Source: Bacillus bingmayongensis (lineage in GTDB: Bacteria > Bacillota > Bacilli > Bacillales > Bacillaceae_G). From it: a stretch of 64,000 nucleotides of DNA. The stretch is from the NCBI RefSeq assembly GCF_000299035.1, contig NZ_JH921518.1:1152439-1216438 (forward strand), written 5' to 3'. The notes beneath the pieces were generated by a model, which was not told the DNA's origin, made no database searches, and was given only the letters and a program-made list of their open reading frames with translations. Position 1 is the stretch's first letter. Each line of letters begins with the position of its first letter. A program made the translations under genes and the position numbers. Shown in pieces: positions 51,591-64,000 of the stretch.

Positions 51591-52370
51591 TTACAACGCG
51601 ATATCCATCCAAATTTTAATAGATGTCGAAACAATCAATATCGCTAATATCCACTGCAATATTTTTTGATTTAACCTCTTCCCTACACTTGCTCCAAGGG
51701 GTGAAGCGATTAAACTTGCAATCGCGATGATTATAGACGGCAGTACTACTACTTGTCCTGTAGTTACTTTTCCAATCGTAATCCCAATAGATGAAATAAA
51801 AGTAATTGCTAATGAAGTCGCAATTGTCATATGTGTAGAGATTTTGAGAATGACAAGCATAATTGGTACAAGTAGAAATGCACCGCCTGCTCCAACAATA
51901 CCAGAAAAAGCACCTACGCTAAATGCTAAAATGCTAGCTAATCCTTTATTATACGTCAATGCTTCTAAAGGGAAATCACTCTGATTCCTTTTCGGAACAA
52001 ACATCATAATAGCTGCCACTGTAGCTAAAATAGCATATACAATATTAATTTGCCCTTCCTCTAACACTTTTGAACCTAGACTCCCGACAAAACTCCCCAC
52101 TAAAATACTCGTCCCCATATATAACACCAATGTTTTATTTATATAACCGCTTTTCCGATAAGCCCATACACCCGCAAATGTTGCGAAAAATACTTGAATA
52201 GCTGTAATACCGCTCACTTCATGCGCCGTATAACTAGTAAACCCTAATAGCACCGGAATATATAAAATCATCGGATAATTAATAATGGCACCGCCAATAC
52301 CAACCATCCCTGAAATAAATGAACCAACAAAGCCAATAAGAAAGATTACAATCATAAAACTGAAGCTCAT
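51591..52370 (-). CDS. TauE/SafE-family sulfite or organosulfur exporter
   Basis: A 259-residue, eight-helix protein. Motifs [19 protein letters not shown] (in the first helix pair; [12 protein letters not shown]) and [17 protein letters not shown] are the duplicated TauE signatures. It ends the persulfide-detoxification gene row, 49 bases after the DsrE-like gene, and probably exports sulfite or thiosulfate formed by the upstream enzymes. Confidence 0.87.
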
Positions 52371-52419
52371 CTTTATTTTTCTCCCTTCTAAAAAGAAGGC
52401 GTTCTTTAATTAATTACCT

Positions 52420-52899
52420 TTAAATAAATAGATTCACATTTCCCTCAGAAGCATCTGCTAAATAAGCTGCCACACCAGCGAACTCAACATCGTCCATAAT
52501 TTCTTCCTCTTTTAGCCCTAATAAATCAACTGTCATTTGACATGCTACAAGCTTAACACCTTGCTCTTTTGCCATATCAATTAAATCTGGAAGTGGCATA
52601 GCGTTATGCTTTTTCATAACATGCTTAATCATTTTAGGGCCCATACCCGCAAAGTTCATTTTAGACAACCCCATCTTATTTGCACCGCGAGGCATCATCT
52701 TGCCAAACATTTTCTCTAAGAAGTTTTTCTTTACTATTACATGTTCATCTTTCCGAAGCGCATTTAACCCCCAAAATGTATGAAAAATCGTCACTTCTTG
52801 ATCATAGGCCGCTGCACCATTGGCAATAATATAAGCTGCCATCGCCTTATCGTAATCTCCACTAAATAATACGATCGTTGTTTTTTTCTTGTTCTCCAT
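52420..52899 (-). CDS. DsrE/DsrF-like peroxiredoxin-family protein
   Basis: A 159-residue DsrE/F-like protein. Start KKKTTIVLFSGDYDKAMAAY; a cysteine lies in VKLVACQMTVDLLGL, the position used for sulfur transfer in this family. ATG 52899 was chosen because AAGGAGGTGGGG precedes it. An operator-like palindrome lies at 52919-52934, so it can be induced separately. Expected role: carrier of sulfane sulfur. Confidence 0.87.
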   Translation of the reverse strand: MENKKKTTIVLFSGDYDKAMAAYIIANGAAAYDQEVTIFHTFWGLNALRKDEHVIVKKNFLEKMFGKMMPRGANKMGLSKMNFAGMGPKMIKHVMKKHNAMPLPDLIDMAKEQGVKLVACQMTVDLLGLKEEEIMDDVEFAGVAAYLADASEGNVNLFI

Positions 52900-52918
52900 G
52901 TTAACTCCCCACCTCCTT

Positions 52919-52934
52919 ATACCCATATAGGTAT
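52919..52934. promoter_or_regulatory. CstR-type operator 1
   Basis: ATACCCATATAGGTAT, upstream of the DsrE-like gene. Confidence 0.7.
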
Positions 52935-52990
52935 CTTACGAAATATACGAAATCCTTTATTTATAAAAGAACTCTTCATCGTACACAGTA

Positions 52991-53287
52991 TTATTCAGTT
53001 TTACCTTCCCAATCTAACATGCCACCAGTCATATTTATAACCTGGAAACCATTGCTTTCTAAAAATTGAACAGCTCTTGAACTTCTTCCACCAGAACGAC
53101 ATACCATAATATATTCTTTGTCTTTATCTAATTCATGCATGCGAAATTCCAATAAACCAAGTGGAATATGAAGAGCTCCTGGAATTTTCCCTTCCGCCAC
53201 TTCTTCTACTTCACGAACATCAATAATGTTTAATCCTTCATGGTTCATTAATTTATTTTCTAATTCTTTGGCTGTCATTTCTTTCAT
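52991..53287 (-). CDS. Rhodanese-domain protein
   Basis: A 98-residue single-domain rhodanese. NIIDVREVEEV near the start and the active-site loop VCRSGGRSSRA (catalytic Cys63). ATG 53287 was chosen for its RBS AAGGAGGA, and it overlaps the end of the upstream rhodanese gene? No: it starts 14 bases before that gene's stop region, so the two are tightly coupled. Transfers sulfane sulfur to an acceptor such as TusA. Confidence 0.88.
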   Translation of the reverse strand: MKEMTAKELENKLMNHEGLNIIDVREVEEVAEGKIPGALHIPLGLLEFRMHELDKDKEYIMVCRSGGRSSRAVQFLESNGFQVINMTGGMLDWEGKTE

Positions 53288-53300
53288 TTTTAGTTCCTCC

Positions 53301-53669
53301 TTAATTCCAAGCATTCATACCACCTGAAACATTTGTGATATGTTGAAATCCTAATTTCTTTAACATTTTTGTTGCCTGCTTACTTCTCATCCCACTTTGA
53401 CAAATAACGATTACTTCTTTGTTTTTATCTAAATAACTCGCTTTTTGCACTAACTCATTTAAGGGAATATTACGAAAACCTTGAATATGATTCCCTCTAA
53501 ATTCACCTGGTGTGCGAACATCAATAAATTGTTTATTCTTCTGATTCATTTTAGCTTTTAGTTCTTTTCCATTTATATTTTTAACTCCCTTAATCGGTAA
53601 AAAGCGAAAAATAATAAACCAAGTAACAAGTACAATTAAAACGATATTTAATACTACATTTGCACTCAT
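53301..53669 (-). CDS. Membrane-anchored rhodanese
   Basis: A 122-residue protein with one N-terminal membrane helix (about residues 5-22), then a rhodanese domain: QFIDVRTPGEFRGNHI and the loop VICQSGMRSKQA (catalytic Cys90). It starts 39 bases after the tusA-like gene. It probably works on the inner face of the membrane in the same sulfur relay. Confidence 0.88.
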   Translation of the reverse strand: MSANVVLNIVLIVLVTWFIIFRFLPIKGVKNINGKELKAKMNQKNKQFIDVRTPGEFRGNHIQGFRNIPLNELVQKASYLDKNKEVIVICQSGMRSKQATKMLKKLGFQHITNVSGGMNAWN

Positions 53670-53708
53670 AGACCATCTCCTCCAATCTTTCTCTATACAA
53701 TTTATTTT

Positions 53709-53936
53709 TTACGCCTTTTTAATCCAGAATTTCAGTACACCGTTTTCTTCCGTATGCTGTAGTACTTCGTGTCCACCTGTTTTTGACCAAGCTGGAATAT
53801 CCTTTATCGCACCTTTATCTGTTAAATGAACCTCTAGCACTTCTCCAGTTTGTAAAGCCTCCATTGCTTTTTTTGTTCTTACAATCGGCATTGGGCACGC
53901 TAATCCTTTTACATCTAATACTTGTTTTACATTCAT
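53709..53936 (-). CDS. TusA-family sulfurtransferase
   Basis: A 75-residue protein with the diagnostic CPMP motif (DVKGLACPMPIVRTKKAM; sulfur-carrying Cys14). It begins 38 bases after the MBL-rhodanese gene. It passes persulfide sulfur between rhodaneses and acceptors. Confidence 0.9.
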   Translation of the reverse strand: MNVKQVLDVKGLACPMPIVRTKKAMEALQTGEVLEVHLTDKGAIKDIPAWSKTGGHEVLQHTEENGVLKFWIKKA

Positions 53937-53963
53937 GTTTCATACCTCCAAAATATTTTTTCT

Positions 53964-53979
53964 TTTATCCCGCATTAAC
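53964..53979. repeat. bcr1 right-end fragment at the CstB-like stop codon
   Basis: TTTATCCCGCATTAAC is identical to 16 bases of the bcr1 end (minus-strand reading of 6947-7104). The gene's TAA lies in it. No other part of the element is present. Confidence 0.4.
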
Positions 53980-55105
53980 CATGAACCGCACAGCGGTTTG
54001 GACCAATTTCCATCTCACTCTCTTCATCTACACTTGGATTGATTTTCCCCATATTTGTCTGGCGAATATCCTCATATGCATTCGGCTGAGGTGGCAAGTT
54101 TTCTGTAACTGTTTTACGAAACTCCGACTTATCCTCTATGTTTAATCCTGCATTTCGCTTAAATAGATCTTTCAGTGTTGCACGAACTACACCTTGCTCA
54201 TCCAGTTCACTCACTTTCGAATAATGCGCGGGTAAAACAATCAACTCTTGAGATAAATCCTTGTAACGTTTATATAAGGTGTTACGTAAATCGTTTACCC
54301 AATCCTCCGCTTTACCCGCAAGGTCCGGACGCCCAATAGAATCTACAAATAAAATATCACCTGATAGAAGATAAGCATCGTCTACAATGAATGATGTACT
54401 TCCAATTGTATGTCCGGGCGAATAGATTGCCTCAATATCAATTTTCGTCTCTCCTACTGTAATTACTGTTCCTTCAACAAGAGGCTCATAAGAAAAGACA
54501 ACTTCCTCAGCATCTTTTGGTGGCAACCAATACGTACCTTTCACCTTCTGTGCTAACTTACGACCACCAGAAATATGATCGGCATGTAAATGCGTATCCA
54601 TAATATTTGTAATTACAGCACCTTGTTCTCTTGCAAATTCCTCATATATTTCAATTGTTCTCACAGGATCAATAACTGCGGCTTCACCGTTAGAAATAAC
54701 CATATAGGACAAACATCCTTTTCCAAGGCGGTTAAATTGATACATGCTGCCACCATCTTTTAGGTTTCCTACTTTAATCGGCTTCACATATTCACTCCAA
54801 GCTTTCATACCACCAGTTAAATAATAAACATTTGTCACACCGCTCTCCATGAGTTGCTCAGCAACAAATTTGGAAGAACCTTCTTTCGCACATACAACAA
54901 GAATATCTTTTTCCTTTGGCAACTCTTCCAAGATGCCCTCTACGCCTTCTAATAAATCAAAATATGGTTTATTAATAGAAGAAACTTGTTTCCCTTCAAT
55001 TTTCCAATCCATATAATCCGCTTCATTACGAACATCTAAAATAAATAATTCTCCAAATAAAACCTTCTCAGCAACATCTTGCGCTTGTAATCCTATAACA
55101 CCCAC
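53975..55105 (-). CDS. Rhodanese-MBL fusion, CstB-like persulfide dioxygenase
   Basis: A 376-residue protein. Rhodanese part at residues ~1-108 with active-site Cys72 ([10 protein letters not shown]), then an ETHE1-type MBL domain at ~115-310 with [15 protein letters not shown] and LSGDILF, the iron ligands. It ends [11 protein letters not shown]. CstB in S. aureus oxidises persulfide and makes thiosulfate, with domains in MBL-first order; here the rhodanese is first. GTG 55103-55105 is the start, within an operator. First gene of the detoxification row. Its stop codon lies in a bcr1-like end fragment. Confidence 0.88.
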
Positions 55106-55109
55106 TACC

Positions 55110-55125
55110 TTACCCCCTATGGTAT
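55110..55125. promoter_or_regulatory. CstR-type operator 2
   Basis: TTACCCCCTATGGTAT, overlapping the translation start region of the CstB-like gene. Confidence 0.6.
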
Positions 55126-55194
55126 ATTTTATTTAAAAAATTTTAATGCTTTCCTAACACATTTTGTACATCCTTCCTACAGCACCAAACACAT

Positions 55195-55210
55195 ATACCT
55201 GTAGGGGTAT
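55195..55210. promoter_or_regulatory. CstR-type operator 3
   Basis: ATACCTGTAGGGGTAT, 90 bp upstream of the CstB-like gene. Confidence 0.7.
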
Positions 55211-55254
55211 AGTAAAATGTTTTTTAAAATCTGTCAACACATTCGTTTGACAGA

Positions 55255-55518
55255 TTATCTACTTTTTACAAGTAGCTGTACAGCCTCTTTAATTAAATCT
55301 TCATTTGATGTATCGCCTTTTTCAAATTGCTCTCGCAAACATTGTTCCAAGTTTGTTCCTACAATTAATCCAATTGTGCGATCCATAGCAGAGCGTGATG
55401 CGGTTAGCTGTGTAATAACCTCTTTACAATCTTTTTCTTCTTCAATCATTCGAAGTACACCGCGAATTTGCCCTTCAATTCGCTTAAGTCGGTTTTTAAT
55501 ATCTTGATTATATTCCAA
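55255..55518 (-). CDS. cstR: CsoR-family repressor, CstR-like persulfide sensor
   Basis: An 87-residue, all-helical protein of the CsoR/FrmR family (DIKNRLKRIEGQIRGVLRMI). It has Cys31 and Cys60, but the copper-binding histidine four residues before the second cysteine is replaced by Asn56 (GTNLEQC). That pattern marks CstR, which senses persulfides by linking the two cysteines. TTG 55518 is the start, after GAGGTG. Lying among sulfur-relay genes with five ATACC-type operators, it is very likely their repressor. Confidence 0.87.
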   Translation of the reverse strand: MEYNQDIKNRLKRIEGQIRGVLRMIEEEKDCKEVITQLTASRSAMDRTIGLIVGTNLEQCLREQFEKGDTSNEDLIKEAVQLLVKSR

Positions 55519-55620
55519 CGTATTATCACCTCAATACTTTAATAGACATGTTTTATCTAAAAAAATGTCTATTGCACCAAATTGTAGTAAAATTCTTATT
55601 TGAATTTACAACCTCATCAT

Positions 55621-55636
55621 ATACCCTTTAGGGTAT
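55621..55636. promoter_or_regulatory. CstR-type operator 4
   Basis: ATACCCTTTAGGGTAT; perfect half-sites. It lies about 100 bp upstream of the repressor gene. Confidence 0.75.
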
Positions 55637-55698
55637 TTTGTAAAGCCCTATTTTATATTTATTATAGGGAATAGGACTTTACTTTAGTAACTTCTACC

Positions 55699-57366
55699 TT
55701 ATTCACATACAATATGGTCTGGTAAAGCAGTTGCATACAATTTAAAACCGCCATCTACATTCTTCACCTTATATCCTTTTTCCATTAACATACGTGCAGC
55801 AACATCCCCCCTCATACCGAGCTGGCATGTAAGATATATTTCTTCATTTACTGGAATTTCATCCAATCTTTCACGTAATTCATCTAATGGAATATTGATT
55901 GAACCCTTAATCATCCCTTGTTTCAACTCATTTGGTTCACGAACATCAATTAAATATCCACCGTTTTGGACAATATGATCAATCTCATACCACTGCACTG
56001 TATCTACAAGTCCTTCAATTATATTACTTGCAGCATACCCCACCATGTTTACTGGGTCTTTTGCAGAAGAATACGGCGGTGCGTATGCTAATTCCAAATC
56101 TGGTAAATCCATTACTTTTAGCTTAGCTTTCATTGCCGTCGCAATGACATCAATTCGTTTGTCTACACCGTCACGCCCCACAGCTTGTGCACCATAGATT
56201 TCCCCTGATTCTTTATTAAAAATCAATTTTAATAAAACAGGATATGCGTTCGGATAATAACCTGCATGGGAATTTGCTTGTACATGTACTACCTCATAGG
56301 GTATATTTAAGCGCTGTAATACCTTTTCATTCACCCCCGTTGAAGCTACCGTTAATTCAAATACTTTTGCAATTGATGTTCCCATCGTCCCTTTGTATAC
56401 AGATTCTGCACGTTCATGAATGATATCCGCTAATAGACGACCTTGTCGGTTTGCTGGCCATGCTAACGGAATCATTGTTTCTGTTTCCGTTACAAAATCT
56501 TTTACCTCAATCGCATCACCAATCGCATAAATAGCCGAATCCGAAGTTTGTAGTTTTTCATTTACTTTAATTGTTCCTCTTACTCCAAGTTCTAACCCTG
56601 CTTCTTTTGCTAAACGACTCTCTGGCTGGACACCGATTGAAAGAATAATCATATCTGTATTGATTTTTGAACCACTTTTTAAACGTACGACTGCTCCATC
56701 TTCTTCAAAAGCATCTACCCCGTCTTCCAAAATGAGCTGAACACCATGCTGTTTCATATGTTCATGTACATACGCTGCCATCTCATAATCAATTGGTGGC
56801 ATTACTTGATTATTCATCTCAACAAGCGTCACACCTATTCCTTTTTCTCTCAAATTTTCTGCCATTTCAACTCCAATAAATCCTCCACCGATGACAGTCG
56901 CATGGCGTGGTTTCTTCTCATCAATATACCCTTTAATACGATCTGTATCTGGTACATTCCGTAATGTAAACAACGCCTTTGCTGTTTCAATTCCTGGAAT
57001 AGGTGGCACAATTGGTTTCGCTCCTGGTGAAAGAATTAAAATATCATAAGACTCTTCGTACGTTTCATTTGTCATTACATTTTTAACAATAATTGTTTTT
57101 TCTTCTTTATTAATTTTTATCACTTCACTTAATACACGTATATCTAAATTAAAGCGCTTTGACATCTTTTCAACTGTTTGCACTAACAACTTCTGTCTCT
57201 CTTGAATCACACCGCCAATGTAATATGGTAACCCGCAGTTCGCAAATGAAATATATTCTCCTCGCTCAAACATAATAATTTCATCATCTTCACTTAAACG
57301 ACGAAGACGTGCTGCTACTGATGCTCCGCCTGCAACTCCACCGACTACAACGATTTTTTTGCTCAT
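55699..57366 (-). CDS. cdr: Coenzyme A-disulfide/persulfide reductase with rhodanese domain
   Basis: A 555-residue flavoprotein. FAD-binding GGVAGGASVAARLRR at the start, catalytic Cys44 in SFANCGLPYY, NAD(P)H-binding VIGGGFIGVEMAENLR, then a C-terminal rhodanese domain (about residues 460-550) with the loop LTCQLGMRGDVA. B. anthracis has such a CoADR-RHD enzyme. It reduces CoA disulfide and CoA persulfide. An operator lies 75 bp upstream, so it probably belongs to the CstR regulon. Confidence 0.92.
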   Translation of the reverse strand: MSKKIVVVGGVAGGASVAARLRRLSEDDEIIMFERGEYISFANCGLPYYIGGVIQERQKLLVQTVEKMSKRFNLDIRVLSEVIKINKEEKTIIVKNVMTNETYEESYDILILSPGAKPIVPPIPGIETAKALFTLRNVPDTDRIKGYIDEKKPRHATVIGGGFIGVEMAENLREKGIGVTLVEMNNQVMPPIDYEMAAYVHEHMKQHGVQLILEDGVDAFEEDGAVVRLKSGSKINTDMIILSIGVQPESRLAKEAGLELGVRGTIKVNEKLQTSDSAIYAIGDAIEVKDFVTETETMIPLAWPANRQGRLLADIIHERAESVYKGTMGTSIAKVFELTVASTGVNEKVLQRLNIPYEVVHVQANSHAGYYPNAYPVLLKLIFNKESGEIYGAQAVGRDGVDKRIDVIATAMKAKLKVMDLPDLELAYAPPYSSAKDPVNMVGYAASNIIEGLVDTVQWYEIDHIVQNGGYLIDVREPNELKQGMIKGSINIPLDELRERLDEIPVNEEIYLTCQLGMRGDVAARMLMEKGYKVKNVDGGFKLYATALPDHIVCE

Positions 57367-60533: not shown

Positions 60534-61130
60534 ATGTACAAAAAAATGGTATTAAGTATGACTATGATAGCACTGCTATGTGGAGTATCTGTCTTCCCAG
60601 CTGCAGCTGCTACACAAAAAGAAGTTGTAATGCATCATCATAAGATAATCTCGGAAGAACAAATCCAGTCATTAGAAAAACAAGGTTACAAAAAGCATGA
60701 AATTTGGAAAGCCGCACACATTGCAAAGATTAGCAAAAAAGATATTAAAGATGTTTTATCGTACTATAAACAAAATAAATCTTGGAAAGAAACAGCGAAA
60801 CATTTTGGCGTGGATCCAAAGAAACTGCATAAACATCATATAAGTAAAGAAATGAAACAAGCACTATTGCAAAAAGTAGCCGAAATGCAAAACTCCACTC
60901 CAGAACAAATGAAAAAAACAATGCAAGATAACCATATTCGTTTACATCACCTAGCGGTTCTAACTATCATTGCACAAAAAAGTAATACACCATTCAATGA
61001 TGTATTACAAATGAAAAAAGATGGCATGCATGTCAAACAAATTGCAGAAAAATTAAATGTGCAGAAAGAAGATATAAGAGCCGAAATGATGAAATTAATA
61101 CAGTCTGTAAAGCAAAACAAGACAAACTAA
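60534..61130 (+). CDS. Secreted, lysine/histidine-rich protein of unknown function
   Basis: A 198-residue protein. Signal peptide MYKKMVLSMTMIALLCGVSV then FPAAAA (cleavage near residue 26). The mature part is basic and helical with two short HTH-like stretches (KSWKETAKHFGVDPKKLHKHH and HVKQIAEKLNVQKEDIRAEM, given here in part) and many His and Lys. RBS AGGAGGAA precedes ATG 60534. The repeated (K/E)-xx-A-K-x-x-x-V pattern resembles small surface or phage-like helices, but I do not recognise a family. Confidence 0.7.
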   Translation: MYKKMVLSMTMIALLCGVSVFPAAAATQKEVVMHHHKIISEEQIQSLEKQGYKKHEIWKAAHIAKISKKDIKDVLSYYKQNKSWKETAKHFGVDPKKLHKHHISKEMKQALLQKVAEMQNSTPEQMKKTMQDNHIRLHHLAVLTIIAQKSNTPFNDVLQMKKDGMHVKQIAEKLNVQKEDIRAEMMKLIQSVKQNKTN

Positions 61131-61135
61131 ATATA

Positions 61136-61173
61136 ACAAAAGAAAGAAGCATTTGTTGCTCTTCCTTTTGTTA
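61136..61173 (+). terminator. Terminator of the secreted-protein gene
   Basis: AACAAAAGAAAGAAGC and GCTCTTCCTTTTGTT pair with a few mismatches. Confidence 0.6.
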
Positions 61174-61207
61174 TGAGCAAATTAGAATATATGAGAAATT
61201 TACTAAG

Positions 61208-61300
61208 ATGAACACCGTTAATATGTGTATTCCCCCATCTCATACTCACTTTGATTCTTTACTCCAACGTGCAATTCAAGATGTAAAAATAATTTATTAA
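61208..61300 (+). CDS. Possible 30-residue peptide (doubtful)
   Basis: ATG 61208 opens MNTVNMCIPPSHTHFDSLLQ, then RAIQDVKIIY and stop. Codon use looks coding-like and a strong terminator follows at once, but no clear RBS precedes it. It may be the remnant of a longer gene. Confidence 0.25.
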   Translation: MNTVNMCIPPSHTHFDSLLQRAIQDVKIIY

Positions 61301-61304
61301 ATTG

Positions 61305-61357
61305 AAAAAAGGCTGTTCAAAAGACAATCAATATCTAACTTTTGAACAGCCTTTTTT
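61305..61357 (+). terminator. Strong terminator
   Basis: AAAAAAGGCTGTTCAAAAG and CTTTTGAACAGCCTTTTTT, perfect stem, upstream of the germination locus. Confidence 0.88.
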
Positions 61358-61432
61358 ATGTTTCCTGTATAAATTTCTGCCTTCCCCAAAAACTAACGAG
61401 AGCATTCCATATAAGGGAAAGAGGTGAAAAAT

Positions 61433-63373
61433 ATGTTTGGCTTACCACGAAAAAAATCTAAAGCCAAAAACAAAAAAACGAGCTGTACCATTCCAGAATT
61501 TATTCATACGATGAAGGAATCTACTGATTTTGCTTCTTATAACATTACAGAAAACGAAACACTATGCCTTTTTTATTATAAATCTGTCGTAGAAGCACTC
61601 ATAATTAAACAATTTATTTTAACACCTATCAAAAAGCAATTAGAACAAATACAAGATATTGCCGACTTGACTAACATCGTCTCTATTGAAGACATTGTTA
61701 TCTCACCTTCCATTGACGATATCCGTGAAAAGTTATTGGGGGGATATGTGCTCGTTAAACTACAAAATATATCACAGGCTAAACAATATGCTCTGATTCG
61801 AGCAGAAAGTACCGTCCTTGGTAAGCGTTTATATAACGATACAGAAAATGAATATAGCGTAATTGGACCCAAAATTGGTTTTGTGGAAAACATTGATACG
61901 AATCTACATTTATTACGCCGCTCTATTGTAACAGAGCAATTAATCTTTAAAGAAATTGTTGTTGGATCTATATCAAAGACAAAAGTTGTAGTGGCCTATA
62001 TAGACGGGATCACGAATGAGCAATATATTAACACCACAACGCAGCGTCTCGCGGACATTGATTTCGACGTTCCCTTTGATGCAACAATGATCGAACAATT
62101 TATTAGTGATAATAGTAACTCTCCTTTTCCGTTACTTTTACCAACAGAGAGGATTGATCGAGCTGTATTTGCTTTAATTAATGGTGAAGTGTTAATTTTA
62201 ACAGACAATTCTCCCTATGCATTAGCTGGACCGACAACACTATTAGATTTTTTCATTTCACCAGAGGATTACTATTTGCCATGGATGATCGGCTCAGCTT
62301 TTAGATTGATTCGCTTTTTTGGGGCTATATTTTCTCTATTTTCCTCAGCAATCTATACAGCTGTATTAACATTTCATTACCAAATGATTCCATCAGATTT
62401 ATTAGGACCTATTATTTTTTCTCGAGCCAATGTACCCTTTCCACCAATCCTAGAAGCACTTTTTTTAGAAATTACAATTGAGTTACTCCGCGAAGCCGGC
62501 GCCCGCTTACCTACAAAAGTTGGGCAAACAATCGGTATTGTTGGTGGAATTGTAATTGGACAAGCTTCTGTTGAAGCAGCTTTAACAAGTACAATCCTAT
62601 TAATCGCTGTGGCTTTATCTGCACTTGCTTCTTTCACAACACCAACTGTGAAAATGTCTACTACCATTCGTTTACTCCGATTCCCACTCATCCTTTTAGC
62701 GGGTGCCTTCGGAGGACTTGGTCTGATTATAGGATTTGTTGTGATATTGGCACATTTATTACATTTGAAATCACTTGGATCGCCTTACTTACTACCCTTA
62801 GCACTTGTAGATGGTTCAGTCGAAGAGCTTCTAAATCATGTCACATCAAACGGTTCATTGTATCTAGCTGACTTACTTGAACAAAATATAATGAATGAAA
62901 ATATTCCGCGGACAGCTTTGAATATTTTTTTATACAATTATTATTCGTTTGTATGCGATCCATTTCTTCCTTACATTCAAATCGCTGATAATCATGCGGT
63001 TTCTGTAAAAGGTCTTGCCTTTTTAAAAGAGGACAAAGTGGTGATGTATACCGATAAAAAAGACTCTTTTTTAGTAAAGTTGCTCCTTAATCCGACTAAA
63101 AACGGTCGTTATAAAGCGCCAATAAAAAAAGACAATCATAAAGGTCTTATCGTAGCACAAAATTTATCTGGAAAAAGTGTCTATCAAGTTGATCAAACAG
63201 GTGATGTTCCTAAAGTGACCATCCGGTTAAAATTAAACGGATTAATAAAAAACTCCCCTAGTTGGCTTGATTTATCAAAAAAAGAAAATATAAACTCTGT
63301 AAAAAATCAAGTAGAGCAAAGTATTAAAAATCAGTCTCAAAAATTGATTCAGCAATTTCAGCAAAAAAAATAG
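61433..63373 (+). CDS. Fused GerA-GerC spore germination receptor subunit
   Basis: A 646-residue protein. Residues ~1-457 are a GerA-type A subunit: polar N-terminal domain, ALAGPTTLLDFFISPEDYY, and the membrane part with LREAGARLPTKVGQTIGIVGG and SLGSPYLLPLA. A normal A subunit has about 40 more residues there. Instead, from ~460 the text is that of a GerC subunit (LYLADLLEQNIMNENIPRTA, DPFLPYIQIADNHAVSVKG, LAFLKEDKVVMYTD). The lipoprotein start and about the first 130 residues of GerC are missing. ATG 61433 follows AAAGAGGTGA. The stop at 63371 falls right after an A8 run. Confidence 0.87.
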   Translation: MFGLPRKKSKAKNKKTSCTIPEFIHTMKESTDFASYNITENETLCLFYYKSVVEALIIKQFILTPIKKQLEQIQDIADLTNIVSIEDIVISPSIDDIREKLLGGYVLVKLQNISQAKQYALIRAESTVLGKRLYNDTENEYSVIGPKIGFVENIDTNLHLLRRSIVTEQLIFKEIVVGSISKTKVVVAYIDGITNEQYINTTTQRLADIDFDVPFDATMIEQFISDNSNSPFPLLLPTERIDRAVFALINGEVLILTDNSPYALAGPTTLLDFFISPEDYYLPWMIGSAFRLIRFFGAIFSLFSSAIYTAVLTFHYQMIPSDLLGPIIFSRANVPFPPILEALFLEITIELLREAGARLPTKVGQTIGIVGGIVIGQASVEAALTSTILLIAVALSALASFTTPTVKMSTTIRLLRFPLILLAGAFGGLGLIIGFVVILAHLLHLKSLGSPYLLPLALVDGSVEELLNHVTSNGSLYLADLLEQNIMNENIPRTALNIFLYNYYSFVCDPFLPYIQIADNHAVSVKGLAFLKEDKVVMYTDKKDSFLVKLLLNPTKNGRYKAPIKKDNHKGLIVAQNLSGKSVYQVDQTGDVPKVTIRLKLNGLIKNSPSWLDLSKKENINSVKNQVEQSIKNQSQKLIQQFQQKK

Positions 63374-63510
63374 ACCCTTTAGGAATACGTGACCAAATTA
63401 GAAGTCGATCAAGAAAATGGAGCATACAGCAAATTCAAGCAATGTATCCATCTATAAATATTAATATTAACGCTGATGTTAACGTTGTACAATCTGGTAT
63501 CGGAGAATAG
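63374..63510 (+). pseudogene. Out-of-frame C-terminal end of the GerC part
   Basis: From 63376 another frame reads DPLGIRDQIRSRSRKW, then QAMYPSININ and DVNVVQSGIGE and stops at 63510. This is the usual C-terminus of GerC proteins. Adding one A to the A8 run at 63363-63370 would join it to the upstream frame, so a one-base loss probably truncated the protein by about 46 residues. Confidence 0.8.
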
Positions 63511-63522
63511 TGAGGTGATAAG

Positions 63523-64000
63523 ATGGGTACAACCAGTAAAGAACTAACCGTTTCCCCTTACTTGGTATTTTTTTTGATTCACTCTCTTCAAGTTGGAATC
63601 GGAATTTTAGGTTATCAACGCATTATTATAAAAAGTGCCGGTTATGACGCTTGGATTTCCCTTATTCTTGCGGGAATTGCAACTCACTTTGTATTGTTTT
63701 GTATGTTAAAAATGTTAGAAAAAGATAACGATCTGATCAATATTCATACAACATGCTTTGGAAAATGGATTGGTTCCTTATTTTCTTTACTTGTTACGAT
63801 TTATTTTTTATTATTTTGTCTCACTGTCCTTCGTACATATATCGAAGTAGTTCAAGTTTGGGTATTCCCGACCATTAAATTATGGAAACTCACTTTAATC
63901 TTTTTATTAGTCACTTACTATATTATAAAAGGTGGGTTCCGTTCTGTAACAGGAATTTGTTTTTGGGGAATTGTACTACCTATTTTCGTATTGTTCTTTT
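63523..64000 (+). CDS. GerB-family germination receptor subunit (partial)
   Basis: The first 159 residues are visible, continuing past the window. Start GTTSKELTVSPYLVFFLIHS and QVGIGILGYQR are typical of GerB/KB proteins of the APC-related germination permease family, with five helices seen so far. RBS GTGAGGTG precedes ATG 63523, 12 bases after the GerC end. The gene order A-C-B is that of gerK-type loci. Confidence 0.9.
   Translation, partial: MGTTSKELTVSPYLVFFLIHSLQVGIGILGYQRIIIKSAGYDAWISLILAGIATHFVLFCMLKMLEKDNDLINIHTTCFGKWIGSLFSLLVTIYFLLFCLTVLRTYIEVVQVWVFPTIKLWKLTLIFLLVTYYIIKGGFRSVTGICFWGIVLPIFVLFF

What the first reader, a model, noticed from the sequence alone, without database searches (positions are those of the whole stretch)
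61433..63373. GerA and GerC subunits fused in one reading frame
The A subunit text runs normally to SLGSPYLLPLA (about residue 460) and then changes directly to mid-GerC text. A GerC subunit is normally a separate lipoprotein outside the membrane, so a fusion would tether it to the end of the last A-subunit helix and change its topology. The A-C-B order implies that a single in-frame deletion of roughly 0.5 kb could have made it. It may be a dead receptor or a new two-in-one subunit.
Basis: partly seen in the sequence, partly recalled or inferred. Interest (0 to 1): 0.78.

Follow-up and report, generated by a model that had tools for sequence, protein, structure and literature searches.

The report
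Broken spore germination receptor operon
Two genes of a spore's nutrient sensor have been run together by a deletion, and the second part is broken again near its end, so this is most likely a recently dead receptor rather than a new kind of protein.

Summary
One open frame (ATG 61433, stop 63371-63373; 646 aa) reads as a GerA A subunit to about nt 62803, then as the middle of a GerC C subunit. Against 14 aligned intact operons it lacks 521-549 bp: the last 46-49 residues of A, the space between the genes, and the first 121-139 residues of C with signal peptide and lipobox cysteine. None of 37 A-subunit ORFs in fetched loci, and none of the 150 matches listed from 199 genomes (list cut), is fused to C. 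Published models put the A tail on the core side and C outside (PMC13170314, passages), so the remnant would sit on the wrong side. Best reading: a receptor inactivated recently, since invariant positions are no more eroded than in intact kin. No close relative was held, so the ancestral breakpoints and possible sequence error are unsettled. Interest low.

The parts
61433..62803 (+). GerA-family A-subunit piece: N-terminal domain and membrane part, without its C-terminal tail
   Evidence: Pfam PF03323 7.1e-137; 51-60% identical to 14 intact A subunits; N-terminal domain matches solved chains 9prb (named GerIA) and 6o59 (named germination protein)
62804..63370 (+). GerC-family C-subunit piece in the same frame, without signal peptide, lipobox and the first 121-139 residues
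   Evidence: PF25198 (profile 111-176/176) and PF05504 (profile 2-120/167); 22-36% identical to 14 intact C subunits
62795..62812 (+). Junction, approximate; the exact breakpoint cannot be fixed because no intact copy from a close relative was held
   Evidence: alignments of both sides
63363..63373 (+). Second lesion: run of A, then a premature stop (63371-63373), where the GerC frame is lost
   Evidence: sequence; alignment
63373..63507 (+). Out-of-frame remnant of the conserved GerC C-terminus (45 codons, stop 63508-63510)
   Evidence: aligned as a separate row with 14 intact GerC ends; no Pfam hit on its own
63523..63999 (+). Start of the B subunit (Spore_permease), open as far as the window shows (159 codons), runs off the window
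   Evidence: Pfam PF03845 4.4e-41; open end

Best explanation
This is an A-C-B germinant receptor operon that has been inactivated. A deletion of roughly 0.54 kb removed the A-subunit tail, the space between the genes, and the lipoprotein signal with about the first third of the C subunit, and happened to leave A and C in one frame. A second, separate frame change near the end of the C piece takes the conserved C-terminus out of frame. The product, if made, would be an A subunit with a partial GerC stuck to its core-side end, without the lipid-anchored outer C subunit that the receptor needs. Shown here: the fusion, what is missing, the second lesion, and no fused homologue in what was searched. 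Inferred: that a deletion did it, order of events, loss of function, core-side position.
For: Pfam coverage of both parts, broken at the junction and at the end. In 14 of 14 aligned intact relatives A and C are separate ORFs with 521-549 bp between the two points. The lipobox is found by pattern in 12 of those 14 C subunits; the other two, L001 and L014, show a cysteine there by eye; the fusion lacks this part. Conserved GerC end found out of frame. 0 of 37 A ORFs hit by either C query at 1e-5 (two of the 37 are the same place). 0 of 150 listed matches in 199 genomes run past residue 473 of the query; longest open frame 564 aa (more matches were not listed). Of 95 plasmid records with a match, 7 cover at least 80% of the query, each in two pieces over two annotated genes; two of the 7 were opened and show three separate genes. 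All three subunits are said to be essential, with C outside and the A tail inside in models (PMC13170314, passages); A and C levels depend on B (PMC8617281, passages). Receptor decay in this group is on record: gerLA called a pseudogene in B. cereus (PMC8624511, passage, citing a paper that I could not open).
Against: Outside the lesions there is no sign of erosion: the A piece breaks 10 of 150 positions invariant in seven others, against 2 to 11 of 142-151 for those seven (L010 10 of 150, L028 11 of 151); the C piece breaks 0 of 9, a weak test. So either the lesions are recent or something is still under selection. The frame stayed open across the junction (about one chance in three, my estimate). 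No copy from a close relative was held to prove the deletion. The outer position of C is itself debated: the same paper found GerBC resistant to protease, which it calls seemingly inconsistent with an outer location (PMC13170314, passage).
Confidence: 0.88

Rival explanations
1. Sequencing or assembly error: the deletion, the frame change at the A-run, or both are not in the cell.
For: The second lesion sits on a homopolymer, a classic place for an indel error. No reads or second assembly were available, and no whole genome is held for the window.
Against: Of 20 other window ORFs scanned with Pfam (20 of the 59 of at least 120 aa, chosen by me, mostly long ones) none looks obviously cut by a frame change; this choice leans towards whole genes and Pfam would miss damage outside domains. 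A false 0.54 kb deletion between two non-repetitive points would be unusual (inference). The one other A/T run of 8 inside 27 genes taken as whole lies in an open frame; one case says little.
Confidence: 0.07
2. A working two-in-one A-C subunit, with the GerC part doing a new job on the core side, or with slippage at the A-run supplying the missing end.
For: Open frame kept across the junction; invariant positions no more broken than in intact relatives; B subunit start intact as far as seen.
Against: No fused homologue in 37 ORFs or the 150 listed matches; the first 121-139 residues of C, the lipid anchor and the C end are all missing from the frame; by published models the C remnant would be on the wrong side of the membrane. 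Slippage was not tested. The structure model was too poor to help (mean pLDDT 55.6, pTM 0.31).
Confidence: 0.04

Closest known systems
GerA-family germinant receptor operons of order A-C-B (e.g. L001 Gottfriedia solisilvae; Priestia megaterium plasmid pPmC-129-3)
   Same: A, C and B parts in the same order and similar sequence (A piece 60%, C piece 36% identical to L001; gene order)
   Different: There A and C are separate genes with a full A tail and a full C; here they are fused with about 0.54 kb missing, and C is cut again at its end
Known decayed germinant receptor genes (gerLA called a pseudogene in B. cereus, PMC8624511 passage)
   Same: a receptor of this family in the B. cereus group that has lost an intact subunit gene
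   Different: here the lesion makes an in-frame A-C fusion; the paper's gene was not compared here

Membership tests
GerA-family A subunit | PF03323 N-terminal and membrane domain | tested here: met
   7.1e-137, profile 6-443/466
GerA-family A subunit | conserved C-terminal tail after the last helix | tested here: not met
   46-49 residues present in all 14 aligned intact relatives are missing
GerC-family C subunit | signal peptide and lipobox cysteine | tested here: not met
   lipobox by pattern in 12 of 14 intact C subunits, cysteine there by eye in the other two; this region is absent from the fusion
GerC-family C subunit | full N-terminal domain PF25198 and C-terminal domain PF05504 | tested here: not met
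   only profile 111-176/176 and 2-120/167 in frame
Working three-part germinant receptor | separate A, B and C proteins, all required | tested here: not met
   A and C fused, C cut at both ends; requirement for all three from PMC13170314 (passage)
Working three-part germinant receptor | complete B subunit | not testable with these tools
   the window ends 159 codons into B and no genome is held for it
Working three-part germinant receptor | expression in the forespore | tested here: inconclusive
   best upstream match to a SigG consensus that I recalled scores 10 of 13, reached or passed in 133 of 500 shuffles

The most novel reading that the evidence does not exclude
A functional A-C fusion subunit in which the GerC remnant works on the core side of the spore membrane, with the missing end supplied by slippage at the A-run.
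Probability: 0.03. Interest if true: 0.6.

Novelty: new member of a known kind. Interest (0 to 1): 0.17.

Why it matters
It is one more case of a spore former losing one of its nutrient receptors. It shows how a deletion in an A-C-B operon can leave a long open frame that annotation may name as a protein although two receptor parts are damaged. If the fusion were made and worked, it would contradict the present picture of a lipid-anchored C ring outside the membrane.

Tried and rejected
Residues 460-646 as a normal GerA C-terminus of a subfamily: rejected; 14 of 14 aligned relatives have a different tail and the residues match GerC models. A widespread natural A-C fusion: not found (viral contigs: exact junction pattern 0 matches, and no relative; plasmids: the 7 records that cover most of the query have two genes). 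The same locus in a close relative: not found; no genome is held for the window; best DNA match to this operon 69% among 19 genomes of one family; best spoVR match 79% among 397 genomes of the order; no near plasmid match for 61000-64000 or 1-25000, one 0.5 kb match at 77% for 39001-64000. So the ancestral breakpoints, and any short repeat at them, could not be tested; the repeat finder sees only what is left. Structure prediction of the fusion: too poor to use; no fold search was made on it and the second fold job was not used. A trimmed alignment made for it (A2) seemed to place the C rows wrongly and was not used; A1 was. GerC profile against PDB: no hit. SigG-like promoter: not better than shuffles. 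Papers: three sought by id were not held; searches were seen as listings (16 returned unrelated geoscience papers, 53 returned none); passages were seen of PMC3765415, PMC8624511, PMC13170314 and PMC8617281; no paper was read whole. I make no claim that this locus is unpublished.

Rows dropped: one search found 37 A-subunit ORFs (L012 is the same place as L001). The A-C alignments used 14 of the 37; left out were L007 (distant), L011 (no C ORF seen in the fetched stretch), L012 (duplicate) and 20 with no C hit. Seven of the 14 (L010, L013-L018) are close to each other. One search used 7 of the 14 (L010 for that group; L004 also left out). One search lists only the best 150 matches.

Full report
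What is there. The frame 61433-63373 is open as described. Its first part is a GerA-family A subunit (PF03323, 7.1e-137) whose soluble N-terminal domain also matches two solved chains, 9prb (GerIA) and 6o59. From about nt 62804 it reads as a GerC-family C subunit, entering the GerC N-terminal domain at profile position 111 of 176 (PF25198) and leaving the C-terminal domain at 120 of 167 (PF05504). The B subunit starts at 63523 and runs off the window.

What is missing. I collected relatives and aligned 14 intact A-C pairs. In all 14, A and C are separate ORFs. Between the points that match the two sides of the junction they hold 521-549 bp: the last 46-49 residues of A, the gap or overlap between the genes, and the first 121-139 residues of C. 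That stretch carries the signal peptide and lipobox, found by pattern in 12 of the 14 and by eye in the other two. Seven of the 14 are close to each other, so this is fewer than 14 independent cases.

A second lesion. The C frame ends at the stop 63371-63373, directly after a run of A at 63363-63370. The 45 codons from 63373 to 63507, read as a piece of their own, match the conserved end of intact GerC proteins, which is in frame in all 14. Two separate lesions in the C part speak for a gene no longer kept intact. Of six relatives inspected at this site, five have no long A-run and one, L006, has seven A in a row.

Is the fusion found elsewhere? Of 37 A-subunit ORFs in the fetched loci (36 distinct places), none is hit by either C query. 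In 199 genomes drawn from the order, 195 have matches; the 150 listed all end at query residue 473 or before, with open frames of at most 564 aa (further matches were not listed). Two of the 150 have stop codons inside the A gene, so broken A genes occur elsewhere. Among plasmids 95 records match, and the seven that cover at least 80% of the query do so as two annotated genes (two of them opened).

Effect on the protein. Published models, supported by topology tests of the A N-terminal domain, place that domain and the small A tail on the core side and the C subunits as a ring on the outer surface; all three subunits are called essential (PMC13170314, passages; PMC8617281, passages). A GerC remnant joined where the A tail should be would therefore lie on the core side, without lipid anchor or first third. 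Against this, the same paper reports GerBC resistant to protease, which it calls seemingly inconsistent with an outer position. My own structure model was too poor to test this (mean pLDDT 55.6, pTM 0.31).

Age. Outside the lesions the sequence looks well kept. At positions invariant in seven other A subunits the window breaks 10 of 150, against 2-11 for those seven tested the same way; in C it breaks 0 of 9. I read this as recent loss, but it does not exclude a working fusion.

Host. A neighbouring nitroreductase differs from PDB chain 2i7h at 16 of 187 aligned residues by my count, and a CoA-disulfide reductase is close to 3icr. I recall these as B. cereus and B. anthracis entries; the calls do not name the organism. 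This fits a member or near relative of the B. cereus group that is neither of the two. No close genome was found in what was searched, so species and sister strains could not be checked.

Verdict. A real but ordinary event: a germinant receptor operon broken by a deletion and a frame change. Sequence error is possible for the second lesion and less likely for the first. A two-in-one subunit is not excluded, but has little in its favour beyond the open frame and the lack of erosion.

Noticed in passing
window 61286-61376: Inverted repeat (two 38-nt arms, 76% complementary, 15 nt apart) just upstream of the operon, perhaps a terminator of the gene before it; the terminator scan, limited to short loops, does not list it.
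   Followed up: no
window 51591-57366: Possible sulfur or persulfide gene group: TauE exporter, a DsrE-like match in a Priestia plasmid at 52420-52902, metallo-beta-lactamase with rhodanese domain, CoA-disulfide reductase.
   Followed up: no
   Followed up: no
   Followed up: no
plasmid record CP079755.1, 306683-307753: A record named Klebsiella grimontii holds a GerA-family spore germination protein; perhaps a mislabelled or mixed record.
   Followed up: no
L022:1239-3044: A-subunit ORF of 601 aa, about 100 longer than most, without a C match.
   Followed up: no
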